A stretch of DNA of 64,000 nucleotides from Oceanidesulfovibrio indonesiensis (GTDB lineage: Bacteria; Desulfobacterota; Desulfovibrionia; Desulfovibrionales; Desulfovibrionaceae), in contig NZ_QMIE01000003.1 in NCBI RefSeq assembly GCF_007625075.1, positions 43,326 to 107,325 of the forward strand. The letters are read 5' to 3'. Below the pieces are notes generated by a model that was not told where the DNA came from, made no database searches, and saw only the letters and a list, made by a program, of their open reading frames with translations. A program made the translations under genes and the position numbers. Every line of letters begins with the position of its first letter. Positions within the stretch are counted from its first letter, which is position 1. Shown here one piece after another: positions 31,067 to 39,590 of this stretch.

Positions 31067-32272
31067 CTACATGAGATACGCGGCCGGGTCGATGTTGTAG
31101 CGCTTGGGGTTGAGGCACTCGATGATCTCGAGCACATGGGAGCTGTCACCGCGGTTCTCCGCCAGATCGACCTGCCGCGGGGTGCAGGGCCGTTGCATGT
31201 AGTCCAGCACCACGATGACCTGCGGATACAACGGTACCGAGATGTTGGAGCCCGAGACAACCGCGTACTCACGCGAGGAAAGTCGAACGAAGCTGCCCAC
31301 CGGATAGATGCCCATGGACTTGATGAACCGTTCCACGTAGCCGGTGTGGAAATCCTCACCGCGCATGGTGTACATCAGGGACAGCGCCTTGTACGGCAGC
31401 ATGCCTTTCTTGTAGACCCGCTCGCTGGTGAGGGCGTCGTAAACGTCGGCCACTGCGATGATGCGCGCCAGCACGGAGACTTCGTCGCCAGACGCCGCGT
31501 CCGGATACCCCCTGCCGTTGTGTTTCTCGTGATGCTGGAGCACGCCGAGCAACACGTCCTCGCCTGCGCCGCCTTGCTGAGCGAGAAGCTCGAAGCCCTT
31601 CTGCGGATGGGACTTCATGATCTCGAACTCTTCTTCGGTGAGCTTGCCGGGTTTGTTGAGTATGGCTTCCGGGATTTTCGCCTTGCCCAGGTCGTGGAAA
31701 ATGCCGGCCGATCCCAGGGCGCGCAGCATCTTGTGGGAGAGGCCCAGATTTTTGCCGAAAGCCACGGCAAGCACGGCGACATTTATGGAATGGGTGTAGG
31801 AATATTCGTCGAAGTCGCGCAGCTTTGTCAGGCTGACGATGGCGTCATCATTGCGCATCACGCTGTCGATGACCGATTCCACGAGCTTCTCGGACTTGGA
31901 GTAGTCCACGAGATAGCCCATGCGCGCGCCGTGGAGGAACTCCCGGGCGAACTGCAAAGAGTCCGTGTACAGCCTGCGCGCCCGGCCCATTTCCTCTTTG
32001 AAGCTGACCTTCCTGGAGGGAATACGGGCGAGGTCGTCGGCGTCCTGGAGCAGCGACTCCTCCAGGGGCTCCTCGTCCTCCAGCCCGGCATAGCTGCCCC
32101 TGGAGGGATCGACAAATATCTCCTCGAATCCCTCGGCAAGGATCGCGTCTATTCGCTCCTGAGACTCAATCTCGCCTTCCTCCTGATAGAGGTAGGGATA
32201 ATCCATCCAGGAAAGACCGGCATCCACAACGAACATGCCGACGCGGAGTTGCGTGGCCGGAATCTTTTTCAT
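31067..32272 (-). CDS. HD-GYP c-di-GMP phosphodiesterase
   Basis: The 401-residue protein has an N-terminal DUF3391-like region (MKKIPATQLRVGMFVVD) and an HD-GYP domain at about 150-330. H161, the HD pair at 193-194 (FHDLGKAKIP), H222, and the HHEKHNGRGYP motif (247-257) are all present, so it should be active. The C-terminal segment (FVRLSSREYAVVSG) is the usual tail of this type. A GAGGGGG ribosome site precedes the ATG. It would break down c-di-GMP and counter the GGDEF-EAL protein encoded at 60106. Confidence 0.95.
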   Translation of the reverse strand: MKKIPATQLRVGMFVVDAGLSWMDYPYLYQEEGEIESQERIDAILAEGFEEIFVDPSRGSYAGLEDEEPLEESLLQDADDLARIPSRKVSFKEEMGRARRLYTDSLQFAREFLHGARMGYLVDYSKSEKLVESVIDSVMRNDDAIVSLTKLRDFDEYSYTHSINVAVLAVAFGKNLGLSHKMLRALGSAGIFHDLGKAKIPEAILNKPGKLTEEEFEIMKSHPQKGFELLAQQGGAGEDVLLGVLQHHEKHNGRGYPDAASGDEVSVLARIIAVADVYDALTSERVYKKGMLPYKALSLMYTMRGEDFHTGYVERFIKSMGIYPVGSFVRLSSREYAVVSGSNISVPLYPQVIVVLDYMQRPCTPRQVDLAENRGDSSHVLEIIECLNPKRYNIDPAAYLM

Positions 32273-32507
32273 GCCCCCTCGTTCCCTCTGCCCGCTTGAG
32301 GAAGGAATCGGGCAGAGGCCGATAATGCATAACCTTACACATCGGGGTCAAGTGCTCACTGCTGCGGGAAACGCACTCCGCATTTGTACGGATGGCACAC
32401 ATGGGAAGGAAGGCAAAAACGCCAGCCCGGAAATGAACGGAGCTTTGGTGAAGAAACCGCGGCGCCGCCTGAAATGAAGAGGGGTCTGTTGAGCAGAATG
32501 GGCCGGC

Positions 32508-32924
32508 TCAGGCGTTGGCAGGAGAGTCGCCGTTGTTGCCCGATCGGGGTCGTGCATCCGGCAGAATGCGACGCACGCTATTGAGGAGTTTGTTGATATC
32601 GATGGGTTTCGCCAGGGCGTCGGCCACTTCCAGCGGTTGCGCTAGCTCCAGGACGGTCTGCGCATCGAAATTCTCGCCGCCGGTAATGGCGATAATCCGG
32701 CCCGCGCCGATGCGTTTGGCCAGCTCGCTCATCACGGAAAGGCCCCCGCGTTTGGGCAGGAACACATCCACGATGCAGATGTCCGGCCTGTGCTCGTCGG
32801 CCACGCGCAGGGCTTCTTCGCCATCTGAGGCCTCGATCACGTCGAGCCCTTCCGATTCGAGCACCTTGCGGAGCATCTCCCGGATCATCAGGGCGTCGTC
32901 GATGACAAGAACGGTCTGTTTCAC
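32508..32924 (-). CDS. Single-domain response regulator
   Basis: The 138-residue receiver has the acidic pair in VLVIDDALMIREML, phospho-acceptor Asp in ICIVDVFLPKRGG, ITGG, and the conserved Lys in ALAKPIDINKLL. There is no output domain. A GTG at 32924 is taken as start (GGTGA upstream, and the domain begins there), but ATG 32972 is possible. It lies 116 bases downstream of the large hybrid kinase on the same strand and may receive phosphate from its HPt domain. Confidence 0.88.
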   Translation of the reverse strand: MKQTVLVIDDALMIREMLRKVLESEGLDVIEASDGEEALRVADEHRPDICIVDVFLPKRGGLSVMSELAKRIGAGRIIAITGGENFDAQTVLELAQPLEVADALAKPIDINKLLNSVRRILPDARPRSGNNGDSPANA

Positions 32925-33040
32925 GGCATTATCACCAATTGGAGTCCGCCTACTTCCATCTGTTGCACGCATGGAGAACGTTAGAACCATAGCTTTTATT
33001 CCTGAACCAGCATCTTTTGTCGAGGGTCTCTGTCAATTTT

Positions 33041-35950
33041 TCAGGAACTTTTCTTCTCGTTCCCATCGTTGCTTTTCCCCAGCCATTCAACCATCCGTCC
33101 GGACGATTCGGCGATCATATCGACCATGCCGAACAGCTCCTGCTCGCTCGCATCCATGGCGAGCGGCTCCATGGATCGCGCTATCTCGCTCGTAGCCCTG
33201 TCGCCCACAGTGGCGGCAGTACTCTTGAACAGATGGACCAGTCGCTTGAGGTCGTCCCGGGCGCCGTTCCGCAACGCATCCCGCATGGCCTCCACATCCT
33301 TGGGCCCCTGGCGGACGTACACCTCTTCGAGCCGGTGCAGCAGGTCCGTCCTGTTGCCAAGAAGCGACAACGCCCGGCGCACGTCGTCCGGGTGTCGCGG
33401 GTCATTCGATGCCCGTGCCCCCTGATCGGCCGGTGATCCCAGGGGCATGTCAACCGAAGCCGCGTCGTTCTCTTCGCCTGCGCCTGATGCTCCCCTGATT
33501 TGCGCAGCCACTCGCGGGCGTCCGGAGAGGTACCGCTCCATGATCCCGAAAAGTTCTTTCATGTCAACGGGTTTAGCCAGATAATCGTCGCATCCCGCCT
33601 TGATCATCCGCTCTCGATCACCGGGCAACGCATGGGCCGTCATCGCTATCACGGGTACGTCCGATGGCACGGCCAACCGCTGCTTTCGCAGCTTCTTGAC
33701 GGCGGTCAGGCCATCCATCTCAGGCATCTGAATATCCATGAGCACGAGGTCCACGGGCTGGACCGACAGAAACTCCAGCGCGTCCTCTCCGCTGTATGCG
33801 TTATGCACCGTGTATCCTTTGGTGCCCAGGGCCATGCGCATGAGTTCCTGGTTCATGGCGTTGTCATCCACCACAAGAATCACCCCACGGCTTTCACCCT
33901 CCGCCAACAGCGCCCGCTGAGCCTCGTCGGCGCCGGCAACATCGGGAGCGAACATCTGCATTTCCTGAGCGTTGAGCTTGCCGACCTGAATGGTGAAGGA
34001 AAACGTGGAGCCTCGTCCTTCCTCGCTCACCACGGCTATGTTGCCGCCCATGGTCTCCACCAGCTTGCGAGAAATGGCCAGACCAAGCCCGGTGCCGCCG
34101 TATTCCCTGGAAATGGAGGTGTCTGCCTGCTCGAAGTCCTTGAAAATGACGGACTGCTTGTCCAGGGGAATGCCGATGCCCGTATCGCTGACCGAAAACA
34201 GCAGCCGCTGGAAACCGTTCACATCGTTGGCTCCCGGTGCAGAAGACGCCTTGATGACGACCTCGCCTTCACGTGTGAACTTGATTGCGTTGCCCACGAG
34301 ATTGTCCAGTATCTGGCGCAGGCGAACCGGGTCGCCTTTGACCCACTGCGGCAGGTTATCGTTGATCTCCAGGCGCACGCCGATGGTTCCTTCCTGGGCC
34401 ACCACCGCCATGGAGTCCCGCATGCCCCTGAGCAACGCGTACAAATCGAACGGCACATGCTCCAGCCGCAGGCGGTATGCTTCCATCTTGGAGAAATCGA
34501 GAATGTCGTTGACGAGATTGGACAGCGTTTTTCCGGAAAGCCTTATTATTTCGAGATAGCGTTGCGACTCCTCGGGGCTTTCAGCAAGTTCCGCAAGTTC
34601 GGCCGCTCCGAGTATGGCGTTAAGCGGCGTGCGTATTTCGTGGCTCACGTTGGCCAGAAAGTCAGACTTGGCGCGGCTGAGGCTTTCGGCCCGTTTCCTG
34701 GCCCGTTCGAGTTTGTCGGCCGTGCGTTTGTGCTCCTTGCTTTCCCTGCGCAGGGCCTCGTTCGACTCTTCCAGTTCCCGAGTCCGCAGACGCACGCGCT
34801 GCTCGAGCTCCTCGTTGGAATACCGCAACTCGTCCTGGACTTCCTTGCGGCTGGTGATGTCGTGGGAGATGCCTGCCAGACCGATCACCTCGCCGTTCCC
34901 GTCGAACAGCGGAACACGCGTGGACTCCACCCAGCGGGTGGCGCCGCTGGCATCTCTGAATTCCACGTCTTCCACCCGCTTCTTTCCGGAGCGGATGACC
35001 TCCTGATCCTGTTCAAAGAAAAACGCGCCCTGCTCGGCGCCCCAGACTTCAACTTCGTCGAGTCCCTCAAGTTCCTTGGAAGAACGACCACACGCTGCGG
35101 CGTAAGCGCTGTTCACCTCACGGAAACGGCAGTCCTTGTCCTTGAGCCAGACAAGAGAAGGCACGCTGTCCAGAATGGCGCGCTGGTGCGCCTGAGCCTG
35201 CAGCAAGGCCCGCTCGGCTGCGCGACGGTGCGTGATGTCGAACCCCAGGAGCATGACAACCCGGCTGCCGTCCACGTCCGTCATGGGGTGCCCGAACAGC
35301 TGGTATGTCTGGCCGTCCGGAGTTTCCCATTCCCACGTATCCTGCTGCGGTTCTTTCAATATCTCCGAAACCCGACACAACGCACCCCGGTCCGCATTGA
35401 GCTCGCACTCAGCGAACGAAGCATGCGTCCCGTCTTTGGCAGGCTTGCCGAACCGTTGCCTGAACGCGCGATTCGCATAGCGGATGGTCAGGTTCTGGTC
35501 CACAGTGGCCACGAAACCCGGCAAGGATTCCATGTAGAAGATCTGACGCTGCTGTTCACGGCGCAGATGCTCATCCGCGCGCTTCTCATCGGTCACGTCT
35601 CGTGAAAACACCACCACCCGCTTCTCGTCCTGCTCCTTCACCGTCGTCATGGCCATGCGGTACGTACGGCCCAGGATTTCCCCTTCAACGTGTAGGGGCT
35701 CGTCCTGGGAAAACGCCGCGGAAAGCTCCTTGCGGAACTCCCCGAGCGTGTCCGGGGGCAGGAGTGAAAACAACGAACGGCCCAGCAACGCATCCTTGGA
35801 CGCAAGTCCGAACGCATGGGCCGCCAGATCGTTGGAAGCAAGGGCCACTCCCGCTTCATCCAGCACGAAGACAGCCTCGTCCGCCGCGTCGAAAAGCGCC
35901 TGGCTATGCGGGTCCATGCTGAAAGCAGATGACGATTTGGGGGAGCTCAT
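33041..35950 (-). CDS. Hybrid histidine kinase with three PAS domains, receiver and HPt
   Basis: The 969-residue cytoplasmic kinase has PAS domains at about 16-122, 135-242 and 253-372, a coiled coil, and HisKA with His437 in FLANVSHEIRTPLN. The HATPase contains NLVGNAIKFT, DTGIGIP and GTGLGL. The receiver has the phospho-acceptor in DLVLMDIQMPEMDG. The C-terminal HPt has LVHLFKSTAATVG. The full His-Asp-His relay is in one protein. There are no membrane segments. ATG 35950 is preferred over a GTG at 35977, though neither has a strong ribosome site. The downstream response regulator is the natural last step. Confidence 0.93.
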   Translation of the reverse strand: MSSPKSSSAFSMDPHSQALFDAADEAVFVLDEAGVALASNDLAAHAFGLASKDALLGRSLFSLLPPDTLGEFRKELSAAFSQDEPLHVEGEILGRTYRMAMTTVKEQDEKRVVVFSRDVTDEKRADEHLRREQQRQIFYMESLPGFVATVDQNLTIRYANRAFRQRFGKPAKDGTHASFAECELNADRGALCRVSEILKEPQQDTWEWETPDGQTYQLFGHPMTDVDGSRVVMLLGFDITHRRAAERALLQAQAHQRAILDSVPSLVWLKDKDCRFREVNSAYAAACGRSSKELEGLDEVEVWGAEQGAFFFEQDQEVIRSGKKRVEDVEFRDASGATRWVESTRVPLFDGNGEVIGLAGISHDITSRKEVQDELRYSNEELEQRVRLRTRELEESNEALRRESKEHKRTADKLERARKRAESLSRAKSDFLANVSHEIRTPLNAILGAAELAELAESPEESQRYLEIIRLSGKTLSNLVNDILDFSKMEAYRLRLEHVPFDLYALLRGMRDSMAVVAQEGTIGVRLEINDNLPQWVKGDPVRLRQILDNLVGNAIKFTREGEVVIKASSAPGANDVNGFQRLLFSVSDTGIGIPLDKQSVIFKDFEQADTSISREYGGTGLGLAISRKLVETMGGNIAVVSEEGRGSTFSFTIQVGKLNAQEMQMFAPDVAGADEAQRALLAEGESRGVILVVDDNAMNQELMRMALGTKGYTVHNAYSGEDALEFLSVQPVDLVLMDIQMPEMDGLTAVKKLRKQRLAVPSDVPVIAMTAHALPGDRERMIKAGCDDYLAKPVDMKELFGIMERYLSGRPRVAAQIRGASGAGEENDAASVDMPLGSPADQGARASNDPRHPDDVRRALSLLGNRTDLLHRLEEVYVRQGPKDVEAMRDALRNGARDDLKRLVHLFKSTAATVGDRATSEIARSMEPLAMDASEQELFGMVDMIAESSGRMVEWLGKSNDGNEKKSS

Positions 35951-36253
35951 GAATAGCGAAGGCCTGATGTCTTGCACCGTGAAGGCTGAAGTGTTTTTTT
36001 ACGCTTGACAATAATGCGCAACAACACGGAACATTGCATGTAGTAACAGATGTCGCAGCAAAATCAATGGACATTCCCACGGACCCTTGTTGCGCAGGTG
36101 CAGCGGCACTTTCAAACCCTTCCGTTCTTTGGTAGGAACCGTCTGGTGTTGAGGGCCTTGACTTTTTCGAGGCGGCCCCGACTTGTGCAGGAGAACCTTC
36201 ACATTTCATCGACCCCGCGGCCAAGCAGCCGCCTGAGAGAGGCCGTTTCGTCC

Positions 36254-37723
36254 ATGCGTTTGTTCAGTCAGCTTCTCATTTTGATCGTAGCACTCGGATG
36301 CGCCGCGTCCGTAGCCCTGTCCGCCCCGCCGGCCTGCTGCGCGGAGGAGCAGGCCATCGACAACCTGGCCTTCTCCCTGCACCAGCACGAGGGCGACGTG
36401 GACGGGCCGACCCTTCTCGTCGTGGGCGGCATACAGGGCGACGAGCCGGGCGGCTTCAACGCCGCATCCCTGCTCGTAACACACTACAAAATAAAGCGCG
36501 GCAACGTCTGGATAGTCCCCAACCTCAACTTCGTTTCCATCATCCAGCAAAGCCGCGGGGTCTACGGCGACCTCAACCGCAAGTTCTCATTCCTCGGCCC
36601 GAGCGACCCCGAATATCCGGTCATCGAGAAAATCAAATCCATCATTACGGACGAGCGCGTGGACATCGTGCTCAACCTCCACGACGGCAGCGGGTACTAC
36701 CGGCACACATATATCGACTCCATGCGCAACCCCCGTCGCTGGGGCCAGAGCGTAATCATCGACCAGGCGCGGATACACGCACCCTTCGGCAATCTCCAGA
36801 ACCTTGCCGATCGCGTTTCCATGCGGGTCAATAACCATCTCTATGATCCCGAGCATGAGTACAACGTCAAGAACACAAAGACGCGGCTGGGCGACACGGA
36901 GATGGAAAAGACGCTGACATACTATGCCATCAACGAGGGCAAGGCCGCCTTCGGCGTGGAAGCCTCCAAAAGCTTTCCCACAAGCCTGCGTACATACTAC
37001 CACCTGCAAGTCCTCGAAGCTTTCATGGACATCATGGGCATCAAGTATTCCCGCAACTTCGGACTCGATGTCGCTGAAGTCGAGAGAACCATCGACGCGG
37101 ATGTCGCAGTGGCGCTTTACGACAGCCGGATATTCCTGGATCTGCGCAACGTGCGGAGCAACCTGCGCTACGTTCCCATGAAGAAAAACGCGCGCCTCGC
37201 GTTCGCCTCCACCAATCCCCTGGTCACTGTGGTGGGCGAAGGCGGCAACTACGATGTCTTCTACGGCAACCGCCGCGTCACCAATCTGCATCCTCAGTAT
37301 TTCGACTACGACGCCGCCCCGGACACGGTGAGCATGAACGTGGACGGCCGCACTGTGGATGTGCCCATGGGCCGACGCGTCAAGGTTTCGGACTTTTTTT
37401 CCGTGGAGCCCAGGGAAGGCTACCGCGTCAACGTCATCGGCTTTGCCCAGGACGGCGTGGTCAGCGAATGCGGCATCCGCATCCAACAGAGCGACTTCAT
37501 GAAGCACTTTTCCCTGGATACGGACGGCGACGTCTTCCGGGTGGAGATATACCGCGAGGAAACCAACGCCTTCTCCGGCATGGTGCTCGTGGACTTCGAT
37601 GCAACGTCTCCCAAGCCAGCGCCCAATCCCATGCCGGCAACGCTCTCGCCCATGCGCATCATCTCTCAGGGCAAACACCTGCCGTCCGCTTCCGGGGTGG
37701 AGGACAGCTCGGCTTCCCGGTAG
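36254..37723 (+). CDS. Csd4-like (M99) peptidoglycan DL-carboxypeptidase
   Basis: The 489-residue secreted protein has a signal peptide (about 1-30, LILIVALGCAASVALSAPPACCAEE). An M14-fold metallopeptidase domain follows. The zinc site reads GGIQGDEPGG, with Q61 where most carboxypeptidases have His, E64, and H143 in LNLHDGSGYY; the catalytic Glu is E236 in FGVEASKSF. Helicobacter Csd4, which trims muropeptide tripeptides and sets helical cell shape, uses the same atypical Gln ligand. Two C-terminal beta domains also fit Csd4. It stands alone, flanked by a divergent kinase gene and a long intergenic gap. Confidence 0.85.
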   Translation: MRLFSQLLILIVALGCAASVALSAPPACCAEEQAIDNLAFSLHQHEGDVDGPTLLVVGGIQGDEPGGFNAASLLVTHYKIKRGNVWIVPNLNFVSIIQQSRGVYGDLNRKFSFLGPSDPEYPVIEKIKSIITDERVDIVLNLHDGSGYYRHTYIDSMRNPRRWGQSVIIDQARIHAPFGNLQNLADRVSMRVNNHLYDPEHEYNVKNTKTRLGDTEMEKTLTYYAINEGKAAFGVEASKSFPTSLRTYYHLQVLEAFMDIMGIKYSRNFGLDVAEVERTIDADVAVALYDSRIFLDLRNVRSNLRYVPMKKNARLAFASTNPLVTVVGEGGNYDVFYGNRRVTNLHPQYFDYDAAPDTVSMNVDGRTVDVPMGRRVKVSDFFSVEPREGYRVNVIGFAQDGVVSECGIRIQQSDFMKHFSLDTDGDVFRVEIYREETNAFSGMVLVDFDATSPKPAPNPMPATLSPMRIISQGKHLPSASGVEDSSASR

Positions 37724-38261
37724 TTCCGCCGCGCCCCAACCATCGACCGGCTTTGGAACGTGTTGTGCAGGACGATTATTTGAGCCTCCACCAATAGCTG
37801 TTACGCTCAGCTTGCATGGCTCAGGGCGACGCCAATCTGCACCTCCCGCAGGCTGGCTGGCGCCTGGAGCGGAATGTCTTTAACAGTCTGTTCCTGCTAA
37901 TCGTCCCGCAAGGCGGTGTGCGCTCGCGAAGTCCTGCAGGTATTCCCCTTCAGTGCAGACGCAATTGAGCATGGGCAGAATTCGTAAAGACTTTTCTGCT
38001 CCCGGCAATATGTCTGCTTTGGTTTCCCCGTCGGGACAAATCAGGACCGCTCAAGCTGTTCATCGGAAACGATCTTATTAGTGCTTTAAATGTATTAAAA
38101 AACAGCTGGCTGGACAAAACTCGTTTCCCCGAAGTATAGACATCTATTCTCGTCCCCAGACGATCCGTACTGGCCGCCGGGGTTCTCCGGTGCGCCCGCC
38201 TTTTTCCGGCCCTGGCGGTCCAAAACGCGCCTTTCGCGCCGAATACGAGACGGAGAGACGC
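37724..38261 (+). other. 538-bp gene-free region before citrate synthase
   Basis: No convincing ORF is seen. The right half turns AT-rich (around 38070-38105), where a promoter for the citrate synthase gene is likely, though I could not place one with confidence. A copy of a repeat shared with 55562-55708 lies at 37985-38016. Confidence 0.5.
37985..38016 (+). repeat. Third copy of the CTGCTCCC repeat motif
   Basis: The stretch around TTTTCTGCTCCCGGCAATAT matches the right end of the element at 55671-55708 (TTTTCTGCTCCCAGTAATAT), with roughly four-fifths of about 33 bases the same. See the entry at 55562. Confidence 0.6.
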
Positions 38262-39590
38262 ATGAGCAAGACAATCAACTTGTCTGCGGCCGAAGAACGG
38301 CCAGAGACCAAAAATGAAACCGCGACGATCACGGTGCGCGGAAAATCCTACGAGCTTCCGTTGCTCGAAAGCTCCGAAGCCGAACTCGCCATCGACATTT
38401 CCCGATTGCGCAGCGAGACAGGCGTCATCACGTTCGACCCCGGCTACGCCAACACCGGCTCCTGCAAGAGCGCAATAACCTTTGTGGACGGAGAACAGGG
38501 CATCCTGCGCCACCGCGGATACCCTATCGAGCAGCTCGCGGAGAAAAGCTCCTTCGTGGAGCAGGCCATGCTGCTCATCTTCGGCGAGTTGCCCAGCATG
38601 GACGAGCTCGACCACTTCCGTTCCATGCTGCGCGAGCAGGAATTGCTGCATGAAGACCTGTTGCACCACTTCGACGGCTTCCCGCCCAACGGCGAGCCAA
38701 TGGCCATTCTCTCCGCGGTCATCAACTCCCTGGGCAGCTACCATCCCGACCTTTACGAGTTCGATGACGAGGAGCAGTTCCGCCGCGCCTGCGCGAAAAT
38801 CATGAGCAAGGTGCGCACCATCGCAGCCTTCGCCTTCCGCAAGTCCATAGGCCGGCCGTTCATGTACCCCAACCCGAACAAGAGCTACTGCGCTAACTTC
38901 CTGCACATGATGTTCTCGGTGCCGTACAAGGTGTACGAGCCGCCGCTAGGCGCCGTGCGGGCCTTGTCGCTCTTCCTCATCGTGCATGCGGACCACGAGC
39001 AGAACTGCTCCACCTCCACCGTCCGCATGGTGGGTTCCACCCAGGCCAACCTCTTCGCCTCGGTCTCCGCGGGCATCTGCGCCTTGTGGGGCCGGTTGCA
39101 CGGCGGCGCCAACGCAGCCGTCATCCAGATGCTGCAGGATATTCACGACAACAACATCAAGGTCGAGGACTATCTGGAAAAGGTGAAGAGCAAGGAGTTC
39201 CGGCTCATGGGCTTCGGCCACAGGATTTACAAGAACTTCGACCCGCGAGCGCGCATTCTGAAAGGCGCAGCCCACGAGCTGCTGCTCAACATGGGCAAGT
39301 CGGATGACGAACTGCTGTCCATAGCCCAGGAGATGGAAGAAGCCGCGCTTTCCGACGACTTCTTCAAAGAGCGCCAGCTCTACCCCAATGTGGACTTCTA
39401 CTCGGGCATCATCCTGCGCGCCCTGGGCATTCCGGTGAACATGTTCCCGGTCATGTTCGCCATAGGCCGCATGCCGGGCTGGATTGCGCACTGGTATGAA
39501 GAGTATTGCCAGCCCATGCGCATCCACCGGCCGCGCCAGCTCTACATGGGCTTCAACGAGCGCGACTACGTGCCCGTGGACAACCGCTGA
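38262..39590 (+). CDS. gltA: Citrate synthase (si type)
   Basis: The 442-residue enzyme condenses oxaloacetate and acetyl-CoA. Catalytic residues are H280 (RLHGGANAAV), H320 (GFGHRIYKNFDPRA) and D378 (YPNVDFYSG). The N-terminal beta region (ATITVRGKSYELPLLES, GVITFDPGYANTGSCKSAITFVDGEQGILRHRGYPIEQLA) is typical of the long, hexameric, NADH-sensitive type II form. The ATG has GGAGAG upstream and a strong terminator follows. In a sulfate reducer with an incomplete TCA cycle it would mainly feed glutamate synthesis. Confidence 0.97.
   Translation: MSKTINLSAAEERPETKNETATITVRGKSYELPLLESSEAELAIDISRLRSETGVITFDPGYANTGSCKSAITFVDGEQGILRHRGYPIEQLAEKSSFVEQAMLLIFGELPSMDELDHFRSMLREQELLHEDLLHHFDGFPPNGEPMAILSAVINSLGSYHPDLYEFDDEEQFRRACAKIMSKVRTIAAFAFRKSIGRPFMYPNPNKSYCANFLHMMFSVPYKVYEPPLGAVRALSLFLIVHADHEQNCSTSTVRMVGSTQANLFASVSAGICALWGRLHGGANAAVIQMLQDIHDNNIKVEDYLEKVKSKEFRLMGFGHRIYKNFDPRARILKGAAHELLLNMGKSDDELLSIAQEMEEAALSDDFFKERQLYPNVDFYSGIILRALGIPVNMFPVMFAIGRMPGWIAHWYEEYCQPMRIHRPRQLYMGFNERDYVPVDNR

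What the first reader, a model, noticed from the sequence alone, without database searches (positions are those of the whole stretch)
36254..37723. Csd4-type shape carboxypeptidase with the atypical Gln zinc ligand
GGIQGDEPGG places Gln where most M14 enzymes have His, as in Helicobacter Csd4, which is needed for helical shape. In a probable vibrioid deltaproteobacterium this may set cell curvature.
Basis: partly seen in the sequence, partly recalled or inferred. Interest (0 to 1): 0.55.

Follow-up and report, generated by a model that had tools for sequence, protein, structure and literature searches.

The report
Csd4-type cell-wall trimming enzyme
This gene encodes a cell-wall trimming enzyme of the Helicobacter Csd4 kind, most likely working after a Csd6-type partner found elsewhere in the same genome; the enzyme type is already known, but in this bacterial family it appears to stand in for a different, older version that is missing from its usual operon.

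Summary
The ORF is real and is a full-length member of the Csd4/Pgp1 family (Pfam M99). The AlphaFold model matches H. pylori Csd4 over residues 39-449 (Z 47), far above any other M14-like fold (Z 19). Gln46, Glu49, His128, Arg86, Arg94 and Glu222 of Csd4 are all kept. Csd4 relatives in curved deltaproteobacteria are already in print (2012), so the gene itself is a new member of a known kind. Gln is the usual state of the whole family, no special sign of this gene: of 134 M99 domains 113 have Gln, 18 His, 3 Asp. New here: in the order, a divergent M99 normally sits in an operon purB-pyrE-csd6-(membrane coiled-coil gene)-M99. In this genome and 11 other canonical-Csd4 genomes of its family that operon keeps csd6 but lacks its M99, and a canonical Csd4 lies elsewhere. 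No genome of 46 in the family has both. Across 296 genomes of the phylum, 54 of 55 with M99 also have a Csd6-type protein. Most likely the enzyme removes meso-DAP from tripeptides made by Csd6. A role in curvature is plausible but untested; this organism's shape is unknown.

The parts
36254..37723 (+). csd4/pgp1-type (M99) D,L-carboxypeptidase gene, 489 aa; alternative upstream ATG at 36050
36254..36325 (+). probable N-terminal export signal (about residues 1-24), judged by eye
   Evidence: sequence; model pLDDT below 50 for residues 1-6 and 8-34; no signal predictor run
36386..37084 (+). M99 carboxypeptidase domain, residues 45-277
   Evidence: PF17033 E 2e-87
36434..36445 (+). metal ligands Gln61 and Glu64 (Csd4 Gln46, Glu49)
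   Evidence: alignment
36680..36682 (+). metal ligand His143 (Csd4 His128)
   Evidence: alignment
36554..36580 (+). Arg101 and Arg109 (Csd4 Arg86, Arg94: scissile carbonyl and mDAP carboxylate recognition)
   Evidence: alignment; roles from PMC4220969 passages
36959..36961 (+). catalytic Glu236 (Csd4 Glu222)
   Evidence: alignment
37307..37597 (+). C-terminal Ig-like domain, residues 352-448
   Evidence: PF17129 E 9e-18
37604..37720 (+). C-terminal tail, residues 451-489, low confidence in the model; beyond the end of the match to solved Csd4
   Evidence: pLDDT below 50; the alignment to the solved chain stops at residue 448
33041..35977 (-). hybrid PAS sensor kinase, transcribed away from the csd4 gene; a homologue lies beside csd4 in G001 and G014 too
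38190..39590 (+). downstream citrate synthase gene (named by eye); kept downstream in G001, not seen near csd4 in the other 19 canonical loci tested

Best explanation
The gene makes an exported, metal-dependent D,L-carboxypeptidase of the Csd4/Pgp1 (M99) family that removes meso-diaminopimelate from uncrosslinked tripeptide stems of peptidoglycan, leaving dipeptides. Its substrate is supplied by the genome's Csd6/Pgp2-type L,D-carboxypeptidase (G000:C16, locus L187 8328-9851), which trims tetrapeptides to tripeptides. In this family the D,L-carboxypeptidase slot beside csd6 is filled in many other genomes by a divergent M99; here that slot is empty and a canonical Csd4 acts from another locus, that is, one enzyme has replaced another of the same job. 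The trimming probably helps to set cell curvature. Shown: family, fold, active-site residues, co-occurrence with Csd6, empty slot. Inferred: activity, partnership, replacement as the historical event, curvature.
For: M99 and M99_C domains. Csd4 by sequence E 2.8e-100, by fold Z 47 over 406 residues against 19.2 for the next family. All metal, catalytic and mDAP-binding residues checked are kept except Gly131 to Ser and Ala220 to Gly, at sites where Ser and Gly are also the commonest letters among the 74 relatives. In 296 Desulfobacterota genomes 54 of 55 with M99 over the cut-off have Cds6_C, against 21 of 241 without (Fisher 1.5e-40, not corrected for kinship). Slot table: M99 in the slot in 22 of 24 divergent-type genomes and 0 of 12 canonical-type ones, which keep csd6 in 12 of 12 and the membrane coiled-coil gene in 11 of 12. 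No genome with both among 46 of the family. The own Csd6 homologue has GCVA, alanine two after the catalytic cysteine, which PMC8938487 (passages) describes for Csd6/Pgp2 in place of the arginine of transpeptidases. Pgp2 supplies the substrate of Pgp1 in C. jejuni (PMC3961634, abstract and passages).
Against: No activity or phenotype data. Mutual exclusion inside the family rests on few independent events: on the PurB+PyrE tree the paired test has 4 supported pairs and no power. G218 and G298, outside the family, carry both types, so the types are not always alternatives. G034 has a canonical M99 but no YkuD hit, and G129 has M99 without Cds6_C. G005, G035, G048 and G052 keep csd6 and the membrane gene without any M99, so the cassette does not need M99. 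That canonical Csd4 entered the family twice is not shown: one clade is not rejected (AU p 0.33).
Confidence: 0.66

Rival explanations
1. It is a D,L-carboxypeptidase of peptidoglycan, but its role is wall recycling or control of crosslinking, not cell shape.
For: Genomes with the csd6 cassette and no M99 exist, and Pgp2-type proteins are not restricted to curved bacteria (PMC3961634 passage). The organism's shape is unknown.
Against: Both characterised relatives set helical shape (PMC3310789, PMC3310797 passages), and those papers report close homologues mainly or only in curved or helical bacteria.
Confidence: 0.28
2. Another M14-like amidohydrolase, such as a DoeB/AstE-type deacylase, and not a peptidoglycan enzyme.
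For: Weak hits to AstE_AspA and DoeB; these are the next folds after Csd4.
Against: NCBIfam DoeB 24.6 bits against a cut-off of 402.7; fold Z 19 against 47 for Csd4; residues that bind mDAP in Csd4 are kept.
Confidence: 0.02
3. The gene and the divergent M99 are unrelated in function; their alternation in the family is only lineage history.
For: States are strongly clustered on the species-proxy tree and the paired test has no power; both types occur together in G218 and G298.
Against: Both types keep the same Glu49, Arg86, Arg94, His128 and Glu222 positions, and Gln46 in 16 of 17 divergent rows; both go with Csd6 in nearly every genome; canonical needs 5 changes on the tree, at least 4 forced by supported branches.
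Confidence: 0.25

Closest known systems
Helicobacter pylori Csd4 (PDB 4WCK, 4WCL, 4WCN, 4Q6M)
   Same: Fold over residues 39-449, QxxE...H metal site, Arg86/Arg94/Glu222 equivalents
   Different: About 42% identical in the structural alignment; Gly131 is Ser, Ala220 is Gly; extra C-terminal tail of about 40 residues
Campylobacter jejuni Pgp1
   Same: Same family by the papers, and the expected reaction, tripeptide to dipeptide, after Pgp2 (PMC3310789, PMC3961634, passages)
   Different: Not aligned here
Divergent M99 of Desulfovibrionales (in the csd6 operon)
   Same: Same catalytic domain (PF17033, E 1e-20 to 1e-38 in the relatives) and ligands; tied to Csd6
   Different: About 29-38% identical over the catalytic part; no M99_C hit in the three copies scanned; within 3.5 kb of csd6 in 39 of 44 copies, against 0 of 14 canonical ones
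Bdellovibrio Bd1075 (Csd6/Pgp2-like)
   Same: Shows that a Csd6-type enzyme sets vibrioid curvature in another curved bacterium (PMC8938487, abstract start and passages)
   Different: It is the partner type, not the family of this gene

Membership tests
Csd4/Pgp1 (Pfam M99) | M99 catalytic domain over the curated cut-off | tested here: met
   PF17033 293.5 bits, cut-off 27
Csd4/Pgp1 (Pfam M99) | Metal motif QxxE...H | tested here: met
   Gln61, Glu64, His143
Csd4/Pgp1 (Pfam M99) | Catalytic Glu222 and substrate Arg86, Arg94 | tested here: met
   Glu236, Arg101, Arg109
Csd4/Pgp1 (Pfam M99) | Middle beta-barrel domain | tested here: inconclusive
   PF17130 15.2 bits, under cut-off 27.5; the fold aligns across it, model 39-449, 406 residues
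Csd4/Pgp1 (Pfam M99) | C-terminal Ig-like domain | tested here: met
   PF17129 64.8 bits; fold aligned to its end
Csd4/Pgp1 (Pfam M99) | Export to the periplasm | tested here: inconclusive
   Hydrophobic leader seen by eye; no predictor used
Csd4/Pgp1 (Pfam M99) | D,L-carboxypeptidase activity on tripeptide | not testable with these tools
   Needs an enzyme assay
Csd4/Pgp1 (Pfam M99) | Loss of curvature on deletion | not testable with these tools
   Needs genetics and microscopy
Csd4/Pgp1 (Pfam M99) | Csd6/Pgp2 partner in the genome | tested here: met
   One YkuD protein with two Cds6_C stretches, G000:C16
DoeB/AstE deacylases | Match over the curated cut-off of the DoeB model | tested here: not met
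   TIGR02994 24.6 bits, cut-off 402.7; the AstE_AspA Pfam domain is over its own cut-off (35.3 against 25), as a shared superfamily signal

The most novel reading that the evidence does not exclude
Csd6, a so far undescribed single-pass membrane coiled-coil protein and an M99 carboxypeptidase form one peptidoglycan-trimming module across Desulfobacterota, in which the M99 part is exchangeable: in the window's family the resident divergent enzyme was repeatedly lost and its job taken over by a Helicobacter-type Csd4 encoded elsewhere. The membrane protein would be a new shape or trimming factor that recruits or spaces the two carboxypeptidases.
Probability: 0.4. Interest if true: 0.58.

Novelty: new member of a known kind. 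Interest (0 to 1): 0.38.

Why it matters
It extends the Csd4/Csd6 trimming pathway, studied in Helicobacter and Campylobacter, to sulfate-reducer relatives with a clear prediction of partners: a csd6 homologue and a conserved, unnamed membrane protein. If the exchange of M99 types is functional, the family offers natural swap experiments, and the His- and Asp-bearing M99 branches offer natural tests of what the glutamine ligand is for.

Tried and rejected
First species-proxy tree was wrong: PurB rows of some genomes (an isolated group of eight) had been translated on the wrong strand; it was replaced with PurB+PyrE and is not used. The AU test on the full set did not finish; on 46 rows it did not reject one origin of canonical Csd4 in the family, so two acquisitions are not claimed. 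The sign test on independent pairs had no power. A neighbouring D,D-peptidase-like gene next to canonical M99 in other lineages (VanY/M15) is absent from this genome (3 of 59 relatives), so it is not a partner here. The middle domain by Pfam fell under the cut-off. Paper searches for Csd4/Pgp1 or M99 in Desulfovibrio and for the csd6 neighbourhood showed in their listings no paper on M99 in this group beyond the general statements in PMC3310789 and PMC3310797; the library lacks most subscription papers. Chan et al. 2015 on the glutamine ligand is not held; I saw only its title in a reference list.

Rows dropped: one search left out L074 (short) and L076 (the window itself again); L002 and L106 are the same sequence. 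One search used 57 of 59 relatives (G018 and G034 have no PurB hit). One search used 46 of the rows. One search found the Csd6 active-site motif in 31 of 44 rows (Ala 24, Ser 3, Val 4, Arg 0); in 13 the pattern did not match. One search used the 36 strongest matches of the membrane protein (31 beside csd6), chosen by score; weaker matches may be chance coiled coils. The tables were typed; that both calls drew the same 296 genomes is judged from equal counts and handles.

Full report
Observation. The frame 36254-37723 is open and codes for 489 aa; GGIQGDEPGG is at residues 58-67. Homologues exist widely: 74 confirmed loci in genome contigs, best segment 58% identical. The same-genus genome G001 has the gene (69%) in the same gene order from a HD-GYP gene to a trypsin-like protease gene (the last named by eye), and G014 keeps a sensor kinase beside its M99, transcribed away from it. 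The finding is real.

What the protein is. Pfam gives M99 (293.5 bits) and M99_C (64.8 bits); the middle domain is under its cut-off (15.2 against 27.5). By sequence the leading PDB hit is H. pylori Csd4 (E 2.8e-100). The AlphaFold model from a 38-row alignment has pLDDT 85 and pTM 0.81. Foldseek ranks five Csd4 entries first (E 4e-56 to 5e-55, then 3.5e-8 for DoeB); VIA-align gives Z 47.0, rmsd 1.9, 406 residues, model 39-449, against Z 19.2 for the next family, which covers the carboxypeptidase domain alone.

Active site. Numbering by alignment: Gln46, Glu49, His128, Arg86, Asn93, Arg94, Arg147, Trp148, Ile153, Glu202, Met203, Thr208 and Glu222 of Csd4 are identical in the window protein; Gly131 is Ser and Ala220 is Gly. 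Roles of these residues come from passages of PMC4220969, which also calls the Gln motif strictly conserved in Csd4 homologues. That is too strong for the family as now sampled: among 74 relatives the position is Gln in 55, His in 17, Asp in 2, and among 134 rows Gln 113, His 18, Asp 3. Gln lies on both sides of the deepest split, so it is most simply ancestral in M99 (inference); 16 of the 18 His rows form one clade, mostly Campylobacterota, and the 3 Asp rows one clade. In the His rows Arg147 is Ala in 16 of 18; in the Asp rows Arg94 is Leu and Glu202 and Met203 are changed. The complete chromosomes of Sulfurospirillum cavolei UCH003 and S. diekertiae JPD-1 have one M99 each, with His. That Sulfurospirillum cells are curved to spiral is recalled, not looked up; if so, Gln is not needed for a curved cell.

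The divergent M99 and its operon. In the closest 35 genomes of the family (G000-G034) 13 have a canonical M99 (E 1e-76 or better), 17 a divergent one (1e-22 to 1e-38), 5 none, none both (naive probability of no overlap 5.8e-6, not corrected for kinship). Eleven more genomes of the family add 9 canonical, 1 with two divergent copies and 1 without: 22 canonical, 18 divergent, 6 none, 0 both of 46. Divergent copies lie in an operon of purB, pyrE, a YkuD protein with Cds6_C (NTF2-like) domains, a membrane coiled-coil protein without a Pfam family, M99, and often a TIM-barrel-like gene (purB, pyrE and the last named by eye). In canonical genomes, the own genome included, the operon persists without M99: csd6 in 12 of 12, membrane gene in 11 of 12 (in the twelfth the contig ends), M99 in the slot in 0 of 12; in divergent genomes M99 is in the slot in 22 of 24, in G006 elsewhere and in G030 on another contig (the thirteenth canonical genome, G034, has no purB or YkuD hit). 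In G017, counted among the 12, purB lies apart from csd6. A search of the own operon with both M99 types found no remnant. Four genomes keep csd6 and the membrane gene with no M99 found (G005, G035, G048, G052).

History. On a PurB+PyrE tree of 57 relatives the canonical state needs 5 changes, at least 4 forced by supported branches, and the divergent state 10, at least 4; counts cannot tell gain from loss. On M99 trees the family's canonical copies fall apart: the window's group lies among other Desulfobacterota and some gammaproteobacterial copies, the rest elsewhere, but one clade is not rejected (AU p 0.33). So exchange is likely, its number of events open. Against a strict rule, G218 and G298 of another family carry both types.

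Link with Csd6. In 296 genomes of the phylum, 55 have M99 over the cut-off and 75 have Cds6_C; 54 have both, the exception being G129. M99 lies within 3.5 kb of Cds6_C on the same strand in 39 of 44 divergent copies and 0 of 14 canonical ones. The membrane protein goes with csd6 in 31 of its 36 strongest matches. PMC3961634 (abstract and passages) already reports co-occurrence of pgp1 and pgp2 and their closeness in four genomes, one of them a deltaproteobacterium; adjacency as such is therefore not new. The slot pattern and the membrane protein did not show in the listings and passages of the papers searched (passages).

How it works. Csd6 trims tetrapeptide to tripeptide, and this enzyme then removes mDAP to leave dipeptide (reactions from PMC3310789, PMC3310797, PMC3961634 and PMC4220969, passages). 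By analogy with Csd4, the metal held by Gln61, Glu64 and His143 polarises the scissile carbonyl, Glu236 activates water, Arg101 stabilises the oxyanion and Arg109 grips the free carboxylate. Csd6 homologues here have Ala, Ser or Val two residues after the cysteine and never Arg in 31 readable rows of 44, as expected of L,D-carboxypeptidases (PMC8938487 passages). G000 also has two bactofilins, which are nearly universal among relatives (49 of 59 over the cut-off) and so say little.

Verdict. The gene is a Csd4/Pgp1-family enzyme in a deltaproteobacterium, a kind whose occurrence there PMC3310789 and PMC3310797 already state. Its Gln is ordinary for the family. The added value lies in the empty slot beside csd6 and the undescribed membrane protein. 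Shape is the likeliest role but rests on relatives.

Noticed in passing
L187:9852-10628 (G000:C16), relatives: A roughly 230-290 aa protein with one N-terminal membrane stretch, coiled coil and a beta-rich end (judged by eye), without a clear Pfam match in the four scanned, sits directly after csd6 in 31 of its 36 strongest matches.
   Followed up: partly
L039, L075, L118 (M99 domains): An M99 clade has Asp in place of the Gln ligand, Leu for Arg94 and changed Glu202 and Met203, so its substrate may differ.
   Followed up: partly
L041 with L063; L055 with L066; L069 with L067: Genomes with two M99 copies, one with Gln and one with His.
   Followed up: partly
L067, L069, L039: Records titled Helicobacter pylori PMSS1 MAG group with Arcobacter sequences; the label is probably wrong. 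L039 is titled Chloroflexi and groups with Desulfuromonadales-like copies, perhaps a binning error.
   Followed up: no
L152:9014-9913, L136:7558-8448, L151, L153, L140: Canonical M99 of some other lineages lies beside a VanY/M15-like peptidase gene; absent in the window's genome.
   Followed up: partly
G321:C2:32508-33200, G006:C125 (L238): A divergent M99 outside the csd6 operon; in G006 the operon slot is empty and only this copy is present.
   Followed up: no
L089 (G030:C139): A His-bearing divergent M99 on a 3.9 kb contig of a 64% complete genome, nearest to copies of another family; transfer or contamination.
   Followed up: no
window 31067-35977: HD-GYP protein, response regulator and hybrid sensor kinase lie together beside the csd4 gene and are kept in G001.
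   Followed up: no
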